A stretch of DNA of 43,327 nucleotides from Funneliformis mosseae (Eukaryota > Glomeromycota > Glomeromycetes > Glomerales > Glomeraceae). The notes under the pieces are model-generated. The model made no database searches, was not told the DNA's origin, and worked only from the letters and a program-made list of their open reading frames with translations. The translations under genes and the position numbers were made by a program. Location: the NCBI GenBank assembly GCA_910592005.1, contig CAJVPP010000160.1, positions 1-43,327 of the forward strand, written 5' to 3'. This document shows, piece after piece, positions 5,672-31,522 of the stretch; position 1 is the stretch's first letter, and each line of letters begins with the position of its first letter.

Positions 5672-7342
5672 ATGTCAAAAGAACAAGCAGCCTTAACGCC
5701 CGTTACGAGTTTGACACGCTCTTCTTCCTTTACAGCGTTTCACCCTAAGGTGCTTAAACCTTTTAATTCAGGTGAAATAAAAATTTTGTTGTTGGAGAAC
5801 GTCAACCAGTGTGGTATAGATCTTCTGGCAAAAGAAGGATTTCAGGTAAGTTTTTGTTGTAAGGATAATGACCTTTTTTTTTTTAAAAAAAAATCTTAAA
5901 TAGCTGTTTTATATTTTCTAATTCATAATTATACCTTTATACGCGATAACAGGTTGAAGTCCACAAAAAAGCACTTTCGGAAGAGGTTCTTATAGAGAAA
6001 ATTCGTGATGCTCACGCGATTGGCATTCGTTCCAAAACCATGCTTACTAAAAAAGTACTTCGAGAAGCCAAAAAGCTCTTGGTGATTGGATGTTTCTGTA
6101 TTGGAACAAATCAAGTCGATCTTGAAGTTGCTGCTAAGCAGGGTATCGCAGTATTCAATTCTCCATTCAGTAATAGTAGAAGTGTTGCAGAATTAGTTAT
6201 TGCAGAGATTATTTCATTGTCTAGACATTTAGGTGATCGTAATATAGAATTACATCAAGGAATGTGGAACAAAGTTTCTTCACAATGCTATGAAATTCGT
6301 GGAAAGACTCTCGGTTAGTTTATGCTTATCCTGCATATATAATTGTTTTTTTTATCTAACATTTAAAACGATACTATCAACAATTTTGTGAAATCATTTT
6401 TATAGGTATTGTAGGATACGGTCATATTGGATCACAATTATCGGTTCTTGCCGAAGCCATGGGAATGACGGTATATTTCCATGATATCGTTCAGATTATG
6501 CCTTTAGGGACTGCTAAACAAGTTAATACGTTGTATGAACTATTAGAACGTTCAGATTTTATAACTTTGCATGTTCCTGAGACAGAAGAAACTAGATATA
6601 TGATTGGCGAGGAAGAGATTACACGTATGAAGAAAGGAAGCTATCTAATAAATGCTTCTCGTGGTAAAATTGTCCAGATTCCTTCATTAATCAAAGCCTT
6701 GCAAAGTGGTCATTTGTTAGGTGCTGCAATTGACGTATTTCCAAAGGAACCAGCATCCAACGGTCAAAATTTTAATGATGAAATGAATTCTTGGACATCT
6801 GACCTTTTGGCTTGCAAAAATGTGATCTTGACACCTCATATTGGTCAGTTATTTTTATAATAGATCTCGATCTATATTAATTCATTACTTAAAAAATATT
6901 TTTAAACTCCAAAAGGCGGTTCAACCGAGGAGGCACAATATATGATTGGTCTAGAAGTGGGAGCTGCGCTTGTGAAATACATTAGCTATGGTACTTCAAA
7001 TGGTGCTGTCAACTTTCCAGAGGTTGACCTTCGTGCTATTCAGGCTACAGAGAATTCGATACGTTTACTTTTTTGCCATCACAATGTGCCCGGTGTACTT
7101 AAGGTAATTTAAATAAATATTTTTTTCCCAGTTATCATTTATTGTTGACATGGTTTCTTTTTTTATAGGAAATCAATGAAATTCTTGCCGATCACAACGT
7201 TGAGAAACAATATACAGATTCACGAGGTGATATTGCTTATATGATGGCTGATATTTCTTCTGTGGACGAACATGATATAAGAAAGATTTATGAAAGCGTG
7301 AGTTCGAACAGGGCGAACATTTTGACTAGAATTGTATATTAA
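5672..7342 (+). CDS. D-3-phosphoglycerate dehydrogenase
   Basis: Five exons: 5672-5845, 5953-6313, 6406-6843, 6916-7103 and 7169-7342, encoding 444 residues, close to the 469 of yeast Ser3/Ser33. It catalyses the first committed step of serine synthesis, oxidising 3-phosphoglycerate with NAD+ in the cytosol. Visible features are the Rossmann motif GYGHIG (182-187) with an Asp after the second strand (YFHD, near 204), and the catalytic residues Arg264 (NASRG), Glu293 (VFPKEP) and His323 (TPHIGGS). The last 70 or so residues form an ACT regulatory domain (GVLKEINEILAD), which in the family binds serine for feedback control. The N-terminal 40 residues are Ser/Thr rich, as in yeast. All introns are short with GT-AG ends. 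The start MSKEQAALTPV is preceded by an AT-rich leader. It sits between an asparaginase and RPC34 on the same strand. Confidence 0.93.
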
Positions 7343-7532: not shown

Positions 7533-9164
7533 ATGACAAAATCGGAAGTTACTGAGGATGATTGGATGGTATGGGATGTTATAAATTCTCGCGGACAAGT
7601 GAGTTTTTCTTTTTTACTGACCACTTTCCTTAGTAAAAAAAAAAAAAGTGAAGGAGACAAAAGAAACAGTTTTTTCAAATTTTGAATTCATTTTTCTTAA
7701 TAGGTATTTGTTGATGAAATTAAAATTCATGAATTGATTCAAGAAACGTTACCTGATACTTCATGGGAAGTATTTCAAGATATTTTACTCAATTTATATG
7801 AAGTTGTAAGTAATTGAATTTATTTTTATCTAATTATAGATTATATACATTTATTAATAAAATGTTCTTGATATTTAGGGGTTAGTAAGAAAACGACAAA
7901 CTCACGATGAAAGATATATGTATCAAGCACGTTCTAAAGAAACAGCGGCAAAGTAGTTTATTTTAAACATTATTAAAATTCGCGTTTTTTCAGCGATTAA
8001 TTGATAATTATGATTTTAAAGACTTCAATCGCTCGAAAATCATGAATTTGAGGTTTATGAACTTATTGAGAATTCAGAACGCAAAGGTAATGCTTTTTTA
8101 AAAATTAAATTGATCAAATAATTCATTTATTTAATTAAATATTCTCAGGTATCTCAAAAACTGACATTCAAAAGCAAACAAAATTGGTACAGTCTTTGGT
8201 AGAAGGTAGTTTGAAAAACATGCAAGATCAAAAATTAATTAAAGAAGTTAAACCAAAGGTAACATATACGTGTGCATTTGTGTATATTATGAAGAATTTT
8301 ATTGAATTTAACGCGTTTTTTCTCTCCACATGGCTAGACTAAGAAGCTGTATATGCTATTTGATACTAAACCTCATGATGAATCATTAAGTAGATTAATA
8401 TATACAAACGGAGAACCGGATACATTTGTCGTGGAAACTTTAAAGTCAATATGTTATAATTTTATTTATCACAGAGTATGTACAAGAAGTCGTTCTTTAT
8501 GAACTAATTTATGGTGAATCTTACAAGATTTTTATATTAGAGCTTTCCCAGGGGGATGGATGAGGATGCAATTTTTTATCCCAATTATACTGGATATGTA
8601 ACCTTATCAAAGATTGTACAATGTGTACAAGAAACAAAAGTCACAGAAATCGAAATTGAAGAAGCCGATATAAGACAGATCCTTGATGTGCTTATATTTG
8701 AAGGGAAAATTATAAAAAAATTTATGAGTAATATAGATCCAAATTCGATGGTAACTGACGTCAATCGTCCTGATACCCAATTTGTGTATATAGCTAAAAA
8801 AGCTAGAAATATGAATAATGCTTGGACCCAAGCCCCATGTGGAAGATGTCCGGTGAGTATTAATTATTTATGGGATGATTTCAAGAATTATCAGGTTCTG
8901 AGAAATTTTTTTTTTTTGCATTTTAATCTGATAACTTCAAAAATAAAATGCAATAAAAAATCCGATATGTGTTAAACATTCCACGAACTTTGCAAAAAAT
9001 TAATTTCTCGTTTTCTTTAGTTTTTTGAAAATGAATGTACAGAAAATGGTGAAATATCTCCATCGACATGTATATTCTTTCCTCAATGGTTGAACAAAGC
9101 TATTAATATAATACAAGATGATGAGCAGGATCATGGTAAAGGAAAAGAAATTCTTGATTGGTAA
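7533..9164 (+). CDS. RNA polymerase III subunit RPC34 (RPC6 / RPC39)
   Basis: Eight exons: 7533-7598, 7704-7805, 7879-7952, 8022-8086, 8149-8258, 8344-8475, 8541-8852 and 9021-9164, for about 334 residues (317 in yeast). The exon 6 acceptor could equally be at 8338, adding two residues. Two N-terminal winged-helix units are visible (about residues 10-80 and 85-140), with the typical YELIENSERKGI helix start of the second. The C-terminal part carries GYVTLSKI and ends in four cysteines spaced C-x2-C-x6-C-x10-C (283, 286, 293, 304; APCGRCP, then GEISPSTC), the 4Fe-4S site of RPC34/RPC39. With RPC82 and RPC31 it forms the Pol III heterotrimer that contacts TFIIIB and opens the promoter. The exon joined at 7952/8022 is needed to link the halves; without it a short false protein ends at 7955. 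RPC31 is encoded 15 kb downstream. Confidence 0.9.
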
Positions 9165-16184: not shown

Positions 16185-18123
16185 TTATTCTTCGCTTTCC
16201 TCCCCCTCTGCTGAGTTGGACATTACTACGTCCCCACTACTGGCAGTTTCAACACCATTCTCCTCACGCGACTGTGCAATAGCAGAAGCAGGTGAACCGA
16301 CAGTACCATTTCTAACATTTCCGTTTGCTCGAGTTCCTGCACCTCGGCGTCGTCCACCGGCGACTCTGTTTTTCATGACCTCGAAGTTTTGCATCACATA
16401 ATTTTTGCATCTCTGAGCATTTGGCAAATCTTGTATCATTTTTCTAATCGTGGCTTGCGAAAAACCGAAATAATCAGGTCCAGAAGCCGAATTTGAGTGA
16501 TCACGTTGACGAATTGCGTTTGCTTCACGGACAACCGTCGTCCAGGCGCCAGTCGCCGTATTAGCGATGATTGGTTTGTTAGGCTGATCTTCTGCTTCAA
16601 TAACAAACTATTTTAAATACAAGAATTGCATAAGCTAATAATTTCGCAGAGGTGACGTTGGTATCAGAAAGTCGATAACAAAAATTATTCTTACTTTGGG
16701 GTTTTCGGTACCATCTTCAATTTTGCAAACGTACATCGTCTGAGCATTCGGATTAATCATACTATTATAAGCCCTATTTAAGAAACGAAAAGAATCAAAA
16801 GAATTAATATACGTTAACTTAAAAGGTTGATAATAAATAATAAAATACGAATATAATGAGAAGTAATCACGAATATTTACCTCTTGACAGCATATCCAAC
16901 AGGCCAAATGTATCTTTCGTTGTGGAAAGTATCACGATCATAAACTACTGTACCGAGATTTAAAACGGTCAATATACCGATTTGAACGGGGAGTTTATAA
17001 TTGCCTTTTTCATCTTGCTCAACGTGTTGAACCTTCATCGTCTTTGCATTCAATGGACGTTTGCTTGCGCGTTTTTTAGGGACCTTGCCAGAAGTATGAG
17101 TAATAGGGACAGAATTAACAATGTTATTAGCAGGCGTTGGAGGGGATAGCTTCTTATTAGTAAGACGACCACGTGCTTTTTTGATTTGACGAACGGAAGA
17201 AGCTTGAGAAAGTTGTGTGGATGAACCTATTAAAATAAATAAATAAAAAATATAAATAAATAAATATAAATATATATATATAAAACATTCAACCAAAAGA
17301 AAGAATAAAAAATTGTTCAAAGGTATTTCAAATTTAACTTACCATCTGAGTCTGATGTAGCATCTGAAGAGAGATCAACAGATTTTTCAGAATCAGAGCT
17401 ATCGGAATTTTCGTATTGGCTAATGCGATCTAACAATAATCTTTCGAGCAAAGGAAAAAAAGGTGAAGAGACGAAAGGTTAGATATTTAAAGTTGAAGGT
17501 AACACTAATCCAAATAATCATGTGTAAAACACGCACTCTTTTTCTCTCTTCAAGGATTTGATTCTTTTACGAGATCTCTCAAGTTCTTTAGTTAATTTGT
17601 CATACTCCTAATCGTATTAATTAAAATAAAATGATGAACATGAATATTAGTAAACTAATGAAACAATTTTATGTTATACAAGGTAAGACATGATATCTAG
17701 CATAAATATTTTTTTCGGAATAATAAAAGAAGAAATGTAATACTATCAAAGTCGATAAGTTAATTGATAATTGTCATAAAAAAAAAAAATAATAAACTCT
17801 CGAAGTCGTGGCGGTAACACCAAAAGTACAACGCTCGAAAGATAATAATAATATAAGTTTCAAAGAGGAATAAATATTTTTTAAGTATAACGTAGAGTAA
17901 CTTCATTGAATATCTTATATTTCTCATGAAAAATACTCGTTCTTCGCGATCTAATACTTCTTATATGAATATAAAAGCTACTTACATTTCGCATATCACG
18001 AACTTTGCGTTTAAGTTTTTGATAGTGTTCCTGAGTGACAGCACCATTTTCATGTGAAGAAGAAGTATGTCTTCCTCGACCAGAGTGTGGGTGGGAGTAT
18101 GAATGTGAATGTGATTGAGCCAT
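16185..18123 (-). CDS. FYRN/FYRC-domain nuclear protein (TBRG1-like)
   Basis: Minus-strand exons: 18123-17986, 17607-17537, 17440-17343, 17226-16881, 16773-16695 and 16607-16185, for 384 residues. Order along the protein: a His/Ser-rich start, a basic coiled coil (about 30-75, YQKLKRKVRDMR then KELERSRKRIKSLKRE), an acidic Ser/Asp stretch (SDSSDSEKS), a basic linker, then the FYRN motif (LGTVVYDRDTFHNERYIWPVG, split as LGTVVYDRD and FHNERYIWPVGY) and an FYRC region (SASGPDYFGFSQATIRKMI). The tail is Arg/Gly rich, then acidic. FYRN/FYRC pairs occur in chromatin proteins such as MLL, KDM5-type and TBRG1; the short size with a coiled coil and no PHD or SET domain fits TBRG1. A nuclear, chromatin-linked role is inferred. 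The exon 2 donor GTGCGT is slightly unusual but gives the right phase. Confidence 0.85.
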
Positions 18124-21025: not shown

Positions 21026-22591
21026 ATGGCTTCTTCCTTACCAAATCTCTGTCTTCGAAAAATATTTGAATGTATTGAGGAGGATAAACCTTCTTTACAC
21101 TCGTGTCTTTTGGTGAACCGACACTGGTGTCAGGAAGTCGTACCGATCTTATGGAGAAGTCCCAATGCATACATGTCTAAACAGTTAGTCGAAGTATATA
21201 TAGCTTGTTTAAGTGAGGAAGAAAAAAAAATACTTAATGACAACGGTCTAAACCTTCCCCTTTCTACCGAGACACCTCCAACATTCGATTATGCTAAATA
21301 TCGGCGTGTTCTTCACATTGGCGGTTTATATCACCACTTGTGGTGGTGGTGTAACCTTCGAAGAGACGAATGTATAGGTGCAGAAGGTCGTTGGATACTA
21401 ACAGAATTGCTTCTAAAACTTTTTATAAGTCGTTGTCCCGCTATATATCGATTTTCTTGTGATGCTACTTGCTTACTAGAGAAATATGATATTACATCTT
21501 ATCCGGGGGCCGAGTCTTGCTTACCGCACATTCGACGGTTAACTCTTACCGGGAAAAGATTACGTAAATATTTTGAGAAATTTTCCATCTGTCATGGTAT
21601 ACGCCAATTAAAGACATATCTACCTATATATGAATGGGATACCGAAAAGCAATGTAGAGATATTGAAAAGTTTGAAGCTGAAGCGGAAGGGTTGGTCGAT
21701 TTCATTCAAGCCCAAAATAATTTGCAAGATTTAGAACTTCATGGGGATTATTATGGTCATGATACTGGTGGTAGAATCATTCAAGCTTTGGAAAGTCAAG
21801 CAAAGTCATTGGTGCGTTTAAAATTGAGTTACGTTCGTTTTGAAGGTCATCCACCATTTTATGGAATCGGTGCTTGCAAGAATTTGGAAATATTGGAATT
21901 TGATGGTTGTGATGGATTAACTAGTGAGATGTGCGCCCCGTTGATAACTTCATCATTACCTCGATTATCACAGCTTAATATTTCAAATTCTGATCTTCCT
22001 GTTGATATCGTGTCGGCATTGTCGAGTAATGCTAATACAAGTTTGCTTGAAGTTACTTTGTGTTCCACGCAAAGTTCTGAATATTTAGTGCAAGTCATTG
22101 AAGCCCTTGTAAGCCATTGCCCGAATATCACCAAATTTGAATCAAATCAGATTCATGGTACCGAAGAGGTATCTGCGATCTGTTCACTTTTGAGCAATTC
22201 GCAGCATCTTGAAAGCTTATCTATATACGGAGCAAGCTTGGACGCCGAAAAATTCTTACCCGCGATAGGGCAATCAATACCTAATAGTCTTCGGAGACTT
22301 TGTATTTCATCTGAATGGCAGTTTACAACGACTGCATTTGAATCATTTTTGGAACATTGTAAAGCACCATTGACCTGGTTAACGCTGTCCGGATGTGAAT
22401 GTATTACCGATGAATATCTGGAGCTTGTAGTACAGTATTTGGGAAAAACGTTACAATATCTTGGTGTATATCGTGCGGTATATACCAGGATGGAATCTTT
22501 TGAAAGAGTTAGGAAGGTTATACCCGAGGTTAATGCACCTGAAGAGGGTCATTTAAGATTTTATCAAAGACGTTGTCAACGCGACGATTGA
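21026..22591 (+). CDS. F-box protein with leucine-rich repeats
   Basis: A single uninterrupted frame of 521 residues, with no intron, unlike its neighbours. The N-terminal 45 residues form an F-box (LPNLCLRKIFECIEE, then SCLLVNRHWCQEVVPILWRSP), which would dock on Skp1 in an SCF ubiquitin ligase. From about residue 220 onward, repeats of roughly 25-27 residues carry the L-x-x-L-x-L pattern (LQDLELHG, LVRLKLSYVRF, LEILEFDGCDGLT, LSQLNISN, LESLSIYG, LTWLTLSGCECIT), as in the substrate-binding half of FBXL proteins. A local run of aromatic and His residues (YHHLWWWCNL) occurs near 105. Such genes are strongly expanded in mycorrhizal Glomeromycotina. The substrate is unknown. The start MASSLPNLCL sits directly at the F-box, so it is confident. 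Confidence 0.9.
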   Translation: MASSLPNLCLRKIFECIEEDKPSLHSCLLVNRHWCQEVVPILWRSPNAYMSKQLVEVYIACLSEEEKKILNDNGLNLPLSTETPPTFDYAKYRRVLHIGGLYHHLWWWCNLRRDECIGAEGRWILTELLLKLFISRCPAIYRFSCDATCLLEKYDITSYPGAESCLPHIRRLTLTGKRLRKYFEKFSICHGIRQLKTYLPIYEWDTEKQCRDIEKFEAEAEGLVDFIQAQNNLQDLELHGDYYGHDTGGRIIQALESQAKSLVRLKLSYVRFEGHPPFYGIGACKNLEILEFDGCDGLTSEMCAPLITSSLPRLSQLNISNSDLPVDIVSALSSNANTSLLEVTLCSTQSSEYLVQVIEALVSHCPNITKFESNQIHGTEEVSAICSLLSNSQHLESLSIYGASLDAEKFLPAIGQSIPNSLRRLCISSEWQFTTTAFESFLEHCKAPLTWLTLSGCECITDEYLELVVQYLGKTLQYLGVYRAVYTRMESFERVRKVIPEVNAPEEGHLRFYQRRCQRDD

Positions 22592-27908: not shown

Positions 27909-28531
27909 ATGTGTCATGGTAAATAAATTTCGTAAAAAAAATAAAATAAAATAAAATAAAATAAAATAAAAAGCTAAACGTTTTTTTTTCTTACTTTTCT
28001 TTTTTTTTTTTTAAAAAAAAAAAAAAGCTACCCCTGAACAAACGACTTGTAGTGCTCCTGAATGCGATCGTCCAATTTATGTTGAAAGAAACGGGTACCT
28101 CATATTATTTATAATTTTCAATGACTTTAAATAAAGAAATATTTCTTGCGAATTTTTCAATAAATTTTAACGTTTATTATAGAACACGCCACCCATTCTG
28201 TGGACGTACTTGTGCAAGCCAATACGGAGATTATAAGTACAAAAATTGTAAACGCGTCGGTTGCAACAATTCTCCATTCGTTGATGCAAATGGCAGAGTT
28301 CACCCTTATTGTGGGAAAACTTGTGCAAATCATGATATAGCTTCTCGAATGAATATGAATACTCGTCCTTATGATCCTACGGATGGATTTGATCCACCTC
28401 CCGCTTACTTACCCCCTTCGAATAATAATAATAATTACTTTCCTAATACATTACGTAATTCAAACGTTTCTTCCTATTCTACTATCCCTTCTGAGGATTG
28501 TGTCGATGTTCAAACTGAATTATTCACGTGA
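27909..28531 (+). CDS. Small protein with repeated Cys motif (no PARP domain)
   Basis: Exons: 27909-27918 (10 nt), 28028-28094 and 28183-28531, for 141 residues in phase. Two copies of a Cys-rich unit are visible: C-x4-C..PIYVERNGTRHPFCGRTCA (roughly residues 10-40) and a second with KRVGCNNSPFVDANGRVHPYCGKTCA (about 50-77). The same unit occurs two to three times in the two PARP-like genes just downstream, so it is clearly the same family. The spacing C-x(3,4)-C-x(about 18)-C-x3-C suggests a small zinc-binding fold. The rest is low complexity, Pro/Asn rich, with a PPPAY motif that could bind WW domains. No catalytic part follows. It may be an adaptor or a shortened paralog. The first intron contains a (ATAAA)6 microsatellite at 27941-27970. 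Function unknown. Confidence 0.7.
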
Positions 28532-29324: not shown

Positions 29325-30266
29325 ATGTCCCAAATTTGCTCGCGTTCTGGATGTAGCAAGCCAGTGTACATCGAAACTAATGGATTTGTACATCCCTACT
29401 GCGGAAAAACATGCGCCTCTTTCGTACTCAACAAATTGAAGTTACCCCAACGTTGTAAGAATCCATCTTGTTCACGACAAGCTTATGTTGATCCAACAGG
29501 AATGCAATATAATTATTGTGGGAAAACTTGCGCGAGACAACATCTTAATTCTGAGGCACCTCATTGTACTCGATCAAATTGCCCAAGACGCGCTTATACA
29601 GACCCTCAGGATAAAAAAAAATTTCATTCGTATTGTTCTCCAACCTGTTACTGGATAGAATGTTCAACATTAACCAAAACTAAATTGAGCTTATTAAACG
29701 CAAATAATTTGGATTACATTGGGGCTCATCAAAGATTTATTTCAATGTTACCTCAAGCTAAAGTTCAAGCGATTTTTAGGCTTCAAATGCCCAAGAATTT
29801 GGTTGAAGCTCATCAAAATCTTAAGAAACAAATTGCCCAGCAACAAAATTTGCCATTAAACAAGGTCACTCATAAAATGTTTCATGGTACTAAATCTAAT
29901 TGTGATCCTTTACAATTTCTCAGTCGTCTTTCACCATTATGTTCGAATGGTTGTGGATTGTGTGGAATTGTTACTCAAGGAAACAATACTGCTTATTCGA
30001 GACATAATGGACAAATGTGGTTTGCAAACCATGCCTCAACCTCTTCAGGATATTGCAGTGGTGGTTCCGCAAATGTTATTTTTATGGTTGATGTTTTGGC
30101 ACCAACTGCCAATTCTATATTGATTGTAGGTCAAAATGCGGTAAGACTTTTTTTTACGAAATTTTATTTTATATTTTTTTTTTTTTTGTTTGTTTTTCTC
30201 TCGTCATAATGAATTTTATTTATCTTTCAGGCTACTCTACCGCGTTTTCTGATTTTATACAGATGA
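29325..30266 (+). CDS. Cys-motif plus PARP-like ADP-ribosyltransferase domain, copy 1
   Basis: Exons 29325-30140 and 30231-30266, for 283 residues. The N-terminal 105 residues hold three Cys units (CSRSGCSKPVYIE..HPYCGKTCA; CKNPSCSRQAYVD..YNYCGKTCA; CTRSNCPRRAYTD..YCSPTC), likely zinc binding. From about residue 140 a PARP-like fold follows: an alpha-helical lead, KMFHGTK (catalytic His position), CGLCGIV and a Gly, MWFANHASTSSGYC (matching the FA..AS.S..Y strand with the conserved Tyr), a MVDVLAP strand, and a terminal ILIVGQNAATLPRFLILY. His and Tyr of the H-Y-E triad are present. The Glu position appears to be occupied by Ala or another non-acidic residue, as in mono-ADP-ribosylating or inactive PARPs. 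The 12-codon second exon completes the last strand. It is tandem with copy 2, sharing the same intron position. The start MSQICSRSG sits right before the first Cys unit. Confidence 0.75.
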
Positions 30267-30554
30267 AATTGTTGTAGGAATTATTCTTTTTTTCTCTCTC
30301 TCTCGCGAATCTTACCCAGTATATTGTGGGTTACATCATTTATAATTATTCTTGCGATCTTAAAATAAAGTATATTTTTTTGATGCTGCATGATGTTTAA
30401 ATTAGGACATAATAACATAATCGAAATGTCGTAACCGTGTAACCATCCATCGTTACACATATTTGAACATATAAATTCCCTTTTTAAAGCCGTCATTTTG
30501 TAAAATGTCATTGTTTGTGTTGTCTTGTTCTCTTTCTCTTTCAAAAAAAAAAAA

Positions 30555-31522
30555 ATGCCAACAACTTCTCCTCAAATTTGTGCACGTACCGGATGTAATA
30601 AGTCAATATACATTGAAACAGGTGGTTTCAAGCATCCTTATTGTGGAAGAACATGTGCCACTAACATTATCAGCAAATCGAATGCATGTTTTAATCCAAA
30701 TTGTACACGACAAAAGTATATAGGTCCAAATAATGTTCAATTTGACTATTGTGGAAGAAGTTGCGCAAGACAACATCTTAGTTCAAATGCACTTTCTGCA
30801 CCTACTTGTTCTCGAACAAGCTGTCCTAAACGCGTATATACGGATCCCCAAAATAAGGCCAAGTTTCATGCTTTTTGCTCTAAAAATTGTTATTGGTTAG
30901 AATGTTCAACATTAACCAACACAAAGTTAAGCTTATTAAACGCAAATGATTTAGATCACATTTGGGCTCATCAACGATTCATTTCAATGTTACCTCAAGC
31001 TAAGATTAAAGGAATCTTTCGACTTCAAATGCCCAAGAATTTGGTTGATGCTCATCAAAATCTTAAGAAACAAATTGCTACGCAAAATAATTTGCCGTTG
31101 AATAGAGTTACTCATAAAATGTTTCATGGCACTAAACATTCTTGTGATCCTCTTCAATATATTAACCGTCCTTCACCAGTTTGTTCAAGTAATTGTGGAC
31201 TATGTGGAATTGTTTCTAAGGGAAATGTTTCTACTTTCTCAAAGTATAATGGACAAATGTGGTTTGCCAACAATGCTTCGATTTCTTTGGGATATTGCAA
31301 TGGAGGAACTACCAATGCTATTTTTATGGTAGATGTTTTGGCACCAACTGCCAATTCTATATTGATTGTAAGTCAAAATGCGGTAAGTTACGTTAAAAGT
31401 TTTTGTTTACGAACTTTGGTTTTTATATTTTTATTTTATTTTTATTGTTTTTATTAAAAAAAAATACGTCCTTCTATCTTTTTCAGGCTACTCTGCCACG
31501 TTTTATGGTCGTGTTTCAATAA
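30555..31522 (+). CDS. Cys-motif plus PARP-like ADP-ribosyltransferase domain, copy 2
   Basis: Exons 30555-31382 and 31487-31522, for 287 residues. It is a tandem paralog of the gene 290 bp upstream, with the same layout: three Cys units (CARTGCNKSIYIE..HPYCGRTCA; CFNPNCTRQKYI..FDYCGRSCA; CSRTSCPKRVYTD..FCSKNC) and a PARP-like domain with KMFHGTK, CGLCGIV, MWFANNASISLGYC and ILIVSQNAATLPRFMVVF. The intron falls at the same codon (GCG followed by GTAAG). Middle segments such as QRFISMLPQAK and RLQMPKNLV are identical, while the Cys region and tail have diverged, so duplication is not very recent. Again no acidic residue sits where the PARP Glu is expected. The ATG at 30555 is chosen because it aligns with copy 1; an in-frame ATG at 30525 would add a Phe/Ser/Lys-rich stretch. 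Function is inferred as ADP-ribosyl transfer or binding. Confidence 0.75.

What the first reader, a model, noticed from the sequence alone, without database searches (positions are those of the whole stretch)
29325..31522. Tandem Cys-motif/PARP-like genes that lack the catalytic Glu
Two paralogs combine three N-terminal Cys units ending in YCGKTCA-type motifs with a PARP-like fold. They keep HGT (His) and the SxGY (Tyr) positions, but where PARPs have the catalytic Glu the last strand reads QNAATLPRF with no acidic residue. This points to mono-ADP-ribosylation, altered chemistry, or an ADP-ribose/RNA-binding role. The architecture is not one of the standard PARP layouts I know.
Basis: partly seen in the sequence, partly recalled or inferred. 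Interest (0 to 1): 0.75.

Follow-up and report, generated by a model that had tools for sequence, protein, structure and literature searches.

The report
Fungal zinc-unit PARP-fold genes, rewired active site
Two neighbouring genes of an arbuscular mycorrhizal fungus encode PARP-fold proteins in which the catalytic glutamate and tyrosine have become isoleucine and tryptophan and a loop thought to recognise targets is missing, a change shared by relatives from many other fungi of this group.

The parts
29325..30266 (+). Gene A, 283 aa; exons 29325-30140 and 30231-30266 (stop 30264-30266)
   Evidence: 96% identical protein P0001 without the intron
29337..29648 (+). Gene A, three Cys units: 29337-29414, 29454-29531, 29565-29648
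29691..30263 (+). Gene A, PARP-like domain (residues 123-283), split by the intron
   Evidence: 67% identical to gene B, on whose protein profile, model and fold searches were run
29883..29966 (+). Gene A, HGT (triad His) and the following four-Cys cluster of the PARP-like domain
30015..30053 (+). Gene A, MWFANHASTSSGY: Trp at the triad Tyr position; Ser and Tyr of the nicotinamide pocket
30117..30119 (+). Gene A, Ile265 codon: position of the PARP catalytic Glu
30141..30230 (+). Gene A intron (90 bases), phase 0; donor at the same place in 7 of 7 family genes examined in this genome
30555..31522 (+). Gene B, 287 aa; exons 30555-31382 and 31487-31522 (stop 31520-31522)
   Evidence: identical to P0003
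30579..30890 (+). Gene B, three Cys units: 30579-30656, 30687-30764, 30807-30890
30933..31519 (+). Gene B, PARP-like domain (residues 127-287), split by the intron
31125..31208 (+). Gene B, HGT (triad His191) and four-Cys cluster C197, C210, C214, C217
31257..31295 (+). Gene B, MWFANNASISLGY: Trp236 at the triad Tyr position, Ser244, Tyr247
31359..31361 (+). Gene B, Ile269 codon: position of the PARP catalytic Glu
31383..31486 (+). Gene B intron (104 bases), same place and phase as in gene A
28048..28531 (+). Neighbouring gene C (first exon start not determined; exons about ..-28094 and 28183-28531): two Cys units of the same type and a Pro/Asn-rich tail, no PARP-like domain

Best explanation
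Both genes encode proteins with three small Cys units, probably zinc-binding, joined to a divergent PARP (ARTD-type) domain. The domain keeps the residues that hold the nicotinamide end of NAD+ (His and Gly of HGT; Ser and Tyr of SxxY), has Trp for the triad Tyr and Ile for the catalytic Glu, and lacks strand 4 and the acceptor loop. It is not expected to build poly(ADP-ribose) chains. Most likely it binds NAD+ and transfers single ADP-ribose units, as H-Y-I PARPs do, onto a target brought in by the Cys units. Shown by computation: homology, predicted fold, residues, deletion, conservation. Inferred: zinc binding, NAD+ binding, transfer, role of the units. Target unknown.
Against: The triad Tyr is Trp, and PMC10420676 (passage) says that loss of either the His or the Tyr prevents activity. 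Some 30 residues including strand 4 and the acceptor loop are missing. Single-sequence searches do not detect PARP: no Pfam family at E <= 10 for A or B; only alginate lyases at E 0.053-0.06 in PDB; 7 of 53 family members match PF00644, best E 0.0022. The PARP14 alignment of the last strand scores -1.8 bits by itself. Conserved pocket residues could serve binding alone. No assay.
Confidence: 0.45

Rival explanations
1. A pseudo-PARP: the domain no longer transfers ADP-ribose but still binds NAD+, nicotinamide or ADP-ribose, or serves as a protein- or RNA-binding scaffold, like PARP13 or TASOR.
For: Trp for the triad Tyr, Ile for Glu, strand 4 and acceptor loop deleted. PARP13/ZAP, TASOR and RCD1 are precedents (PMC7532188 passages).
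Against: Those precedents lack two or more NAD+-binding residues, the His among them in PARP13 and TASOR; here H, G, S and Y are kept in nearly every row.
Confidence: 0.4
2. The PARP fold has been taken over for a different NAD+ reaction or ligand (for example NAD+ glycohydrolysis, or phosphotransfer as in TRPT1), the reshaped Trp/Ile pocket giving new chemistry.
For: An invariant 'GN' (53 of 53) and a conserved four-Cys cluster near the pocket in sequence; TRPT1 (H-H-V) shows that an ART-fold enzyme can have other second and third residues (table; its phosphotransferase name).
Against: The four-Cys cluster is also in five of six H-Y-E relatives aligned in A5, so it is not tied to new chemistry; no direct evidence.
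Confidence: 0.12
3. Not an ADP-ribosyltransferase fold; the HGT and SxxY matches are chance.
For: No Pfam match for the two proteins themselves and no PARP in the single-sequence PDB search.
Confidence: 0.01

Closest known systems
Human mono-ARTs PARP10, PARP12, PARP14, PARP15 (H-Y-I/L)
   Same: Best fold and profile matches are PARP12, PARP14, PARP15; His kept, hydrophobic residue at the Glu position, HGT and SxxY kept.
   Different: Trp for the triad Tyr; strand 4 and acceptor loop absent; a four-Cys cluster after HGT; Cys units instead of the WWE or macro domains of several human ones (recalled).
Cys-unit H-Y-E PARPs: Suillus P0036, Candolleomyces P0039, unnamed P0034 and P0035; also the F. 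mosseae genes on C1100 and C566 with more divergent Cys motifs
   Same: Cys units followed by a PARP domain; the four-Cys cluster after HGT in P0034-P0036, not in P0039.
   Different: They keep Tyr and Glu and have 36-47 residues where genes A and B have 7; Pfam PF00644 recognises them above its cut-off. Cys spacing differs (C-x2-C in the basidiomycete ones).
Pseudo-PARPs PARP13/ZAP, TASOR, RCD1
   Same: PARP fold with an altered triad; PARP13 also pairs it with zinc fingers.
   Different: They lack two or more NAD+-binding residues (PMC7532188 passages); this family keeps H, G, S, Y.
TRPT1/Tpt1 (H-H-V)
   Same: ART fold with HGT, a second residue other than Tyr and a hydrophobic third one (table).
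   Different: Second residue His, not Trp; it was not compared with the family here.

Membership tests
PARP / ARTD | PARP catalytic fold | tested here: met
PARP / ARTD | Sequence homology to known PARPs | tested here: met
   Family profile: 17 of 17 PDB hits at E <= 10 are PARPs, best 9.7e-7; hhalign E 4e-20 to H-Y-E-type relatives
PARP / ARTD | Pfam PF00644 gathering score | tested here: not met
   No match for A, B at E <= 10; 7 of 53 family members match at E <= 1, best 0.0022
H-Y-E poly-ART | Glu at the front of strand 5 | tested here: not met
   Ile in A and B; 0 acids in 50 rows with a residue, 3 gaps
H-Y-hydrophobic mono-ART | His in HGT | tested here: met
   53 of 53
H-Y-hydrophobic mono-ART | Tyr in YFA of strand 3 | tested here: not met
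   Trp in 50 of 53 rows; others E, L, gap
H-Y-hydrophobic mono-ART | Hydrophobic residue at the Glu position | tested here: met
   Ile in A and B; family I 35, V 9, T 4, F 1, Y 1, gap 3 of 53
H-Y-hydrophobic mono-ART | Mono-ADP-ribosyl transfer | not testable with these tools
   needs an assay
Pseudo-PARP (PARP13/TASOR type) | Loss of the NAD+-contacting His | tested here: not met
   His 53 of 53
FCS/MYM- or TRASH-like zinc finger (Cys units) | Match to a curated zinc-finger model | tested here: inconclusive
   None for A and B; in the family zf-FCS 5 of 53, best E 0.013; YacG 3; YHS 2
FCS/MYM- or TRASH-like zinc finger (Cys units) | Zinc binding | not testable with these tools
   needs metal analysis

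The most novel reading that the evidence does not exclude
A Glomeromycotina-wide family of NAD+-dependent mono-ADP-ribosyltransferases that works with an H-W-I triad and without an acceptor loop, acting on a special acceptor (for example a nucleic acid or ubiquitin) delivered by its Cys-unit or NZF-like fingers; it would be a PARP that uses Trp in place of the triad Tyr.
Probability: 0.3. Interest if true: 0.75.

Novelty: new variant of a known kind. Interest (0 to 1): 0.52.

Why it matters
ADP-ribosylation in fungi is little studied (so says the abstract of PMC11569842 in the listing). A family found in many lineages of the arbuscular mycorrhizal phylum, with the NAD+ pocket intact but the triad and the acceptor side rebuilt, is a natural test of which parts of the PARP active site serve transfer and which serve binding. 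Relatives with an intact triad and a similar layout give a built-in control.

Tried and rejected
Chance match: rejected. Acidic residue hidden by misalignment: the column before the Glu position (residue 268) holds S 15, G 10, D 8, N 8, P 4, A 3, E 2, H 1, gap 2 of 53, so it is not a conserved acid. One MAFFT alignment (A5) places the last strand 40 columns away from the Glu of P0034; I set it aside because hhalign, HMMER against PARP14 (a stretch not significant by itself), MAFFT A1 and the strand starts of both models agree against it. Viral relatives: viral-contig scans with A4 and A2 gave 50 and 11 pattern matches and no relative. Prokaryotic relatives: the genome-contig scan could not run, so this is untested there. 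Secretion: no hydrophobic start seen by eye; no predictor run. Pseudogenes: open frames, shared intron, dN/dS 0.26. Rfam at gathering scores and tRNA scans of the window: nothing. NCBIfam: nothing at E <= 0.1 for P0001, P0003, P0034, P0036. A fold search with the P0034 model (mean pLDDT 66) was not run. The Cys-unit part was barely tested by the fold search and not modelled alone. Literature: searches of open-licence PMC papers. One search (H-W-I, H-W-E, H-W-L with ADP-ribosyltransferase) found 0 papers; in the others only 6 to 15 listed titles and abstract starts were seen of 9 to 2,575 matching papers, and none of those names this family. No paper was read whole: PMC10420676, PMC12572374, PMC1266365, PMC7532188, PMC10789625 by passages, PMC7955679 by passages and the first part of section 3 with table 1.

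Full report
Identity of the window. The window is a whole contig (C160) of an 82 Mb genome in 4154 contigs; the window has 28.7% G+C. P0003, a database protein of Funneliformis mosseae from a 43,327-base contig, equals the product of gene B, so the source is that arbuscular mycorrhizal fungus.

The genes. Gene A runs 29325-30140 and 30231-30266, gene B 30555-31382 and 31487-31522, both on the + strand, with GT-AG introns of 90 and 104 bases. The products have 283 and 287 residues; 194 of 290 alignment columns are identical. dN/dS by Nei-Gojobori is 0.26 overall, 0.27 in the Cys-unit part and 0.23 in the PARP-like part. The last intron lies at the same codon boundary, phase 0, in the 7 family genes examined in this genome: the donor in 7 of 7, the acceptor found in 6 of 7 within the stretch scanned. 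P0001 (96% identical to A, 1086-base contig of the lgn source) and P0005 (1031-base jgi contig) read across the splice junction without an intron, which suggests cDNA; this is inference.

The Cys units. Each gene has three: C-x4-C-x15-C-x3-C twice and C-x4-C-x17-C-x3-C once. A and B match no Pfam model; of 53 family members scanned, zf-FCS matches 5 (best E 0.013), YacG 3, YHS 2. The model shows a helix after the last Cys pair in units 1 and 2 (pLDDT there 53-85), as in small treble-clef-like fingers (recalled). Zinc binding is inferred.

The triad. PMC7955679 (table 1 read) lists the three motifs of human PARPs: PARP1 HGS/YFA/YNE, PARP10 and PARP12 HGT/YFA/PSI, PARP14 HGT/YFA/PSL, PARP13 YAT/YFA/PSV (inactive). 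The window genes read HGT/WFA/NSI. The third residue is fixed by four agreeing results: hhalign pairs SILIVSQNAATLPRFM with DEMVVYREDAVIPKYL of P0034 without a gap; HMMER pairs silivskdeatlPrfLilfq with SLFVAFYDYQAYPEYLITFR of PARP14 without a gap, though this stretch alone scores only -1.8 bits; MAFFT A1 puts the Ile under the Glu of P0034; and Ile269 of P0003 and Glu312 of P0034 are each the first residue of the strand before the last in their models. MAFFT A5 disagrees and was set aside. In A3 (53 of 59 family proteins; six short or partial ones, P0006, P0008, P0010, P0014, P0015, P0021, were left out) the columns hold: H 53; G 53; T 52, C 1; W 50, E 1, L 1, gap 1; S 50, C 1, gap 2; Y of SxxY 51, gap 2; Glu position I 35, V 9, T 4, F 1, Y 1, gap 3.

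The deletion. Between the strand ending at residue 262 and the Glu position there are 6 residues in P0003 and 38 in P0034, whose model has a strand, a helix and a further strand there. In A3 the length is 6 in 40, 7 in 2 and 8 in 8 of the 50 rows that cover it. Counted from one shared anchor residue, A and B have 7 residues and ten H-Y-E-type sequences 35-47. In PARPs this stretch holds strand 4 and the loop to strand 5, thought to recognise targets (PMC1266365 passages) and called the acceptor loop (PMC12572374 passage).

Distribution and origin. Two searches gave 59 family proteins; every row that bears an organism name is from Glomeromycotina (among them Rhizophagus, Glomus, Funneliformis, Gigaspora, Ambispora, Paraglomus, Geosiphon, Diversispora, Acaulospora, Entrophospora; Geosiphon looked up, the others by recall). 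The search only reaches proteins that share short words and lie within a length range, so absence elsewhere is not shown. A tree of 57 rows puts 50 family rows and 7 H-Y-E-type rows on two sides of one branch, support 100/100; three family rows were dropped as short (P0061, P0065, P0069) and P0039 was not given; the joining branches are long and the root is for drawing only. Other members carry RanBP2-type fingers (PF00641 in 4 of 53, best 1.2e-7) or N-terminal parts without a recognised domain. A Cys-unit plus PARP layout with Tyr and Glu occurs in P0034 and P0035 (unnamed origin), Suillus P0036 and Candolleomyces P0039, so the layout probably preceded the loss of the triad. This genome also keeps PARP loci with Tyr and Glu on C1100, C566 and C283 (C1100 and C566 above the Pfam cut-off).

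Mechanism. The residues that hold nicotinamide are kept in nearly every row while the Glu that polymerising PARPs need is gone, so chain formation is not expected (PMC10420676 passages) and NAD+ binding is likely. Whether transfer occurs is open: a hydrophobic third residue is normal for active mono-ARTs, but Trp in the second place and the missing acceptor loop have no precedent in the papers seen, and one review says that loss of the Tyr prevents activity. I put mono-transfer at 0.45, a binding-only pseudo-PARP at 0.4, another NAD+ chemistry at 0.12.

A lead towards the target. P0043 (unnamed) joins three Cys units of similar type to a NADAR domain, and in this genome the C566 H-Y-E PARP gene is followed on the same strand, under 2 kb on, by a NADAR open frame (E 6.9e-35), with a further Cys/His-rich open frame between them. 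NADARs reverse guanine ADP-ribosylation (PMC11125620, start of abstract in the listing). This hints that Cys-unit PARPs may act on nucleic acids; for genes A and B it is only a lead.

Novelty. None of the titles and abstract starts listed by searches names this family, and search 69 for an H-W-I, H-W-E or H-W-L motif with 'ADP-ribosyltransferase' found no paper; only open-licence PMC papers are covered. I rate it a new variant of a known kind.

Noticed in passing
window 28048-28531: Third neighbouring gene (C) with two Cys units of the same type and a Pro/Asn-rich tail, no PARP-like domain; first exon start not determined.
   Followed up: partly
L031 (G000:C566:22500-27200): A Cys-rich H-Y-E PARP gene followed on the same strand by a Cys/His-rich open frame and a NADAR-domain open frame: a possible writer-eraser pair.
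   Followed up: partly
P0043: Unnamed 318-aa protein with a NADAR domain and three Cys units of similar type.
   Followed up: no
P0040, P0042: Plant proteins (Lotus, Turnera) with a PARP-like domain reading Y-F-E (YGT/FTT/IEE) and the same four-Cys cluster; no PF00644 match at E <= 1.
   Followed up: no
L005, L006 (C1428, C1891): Family members with one (L005) or several (L006) fingers of the type CxxCTFxN..CxxC before the PARP-like domain; their likeness to ubiquitin-binding Npl4 fingers is recalled.
   Followed up: no
window 21026-22591: 521-aa open frame with a weak F-box-like match (E 7.5e-4, under the cut-off).
   Followed up: no
window 6459-6860, 8556-8975, 16877-17320 (-): Open frames matching a 2-hydroxyacid dehydrogenase, the RNA polymerase III subunit Rpc34 and an FYRN domain.
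   Followed up: no
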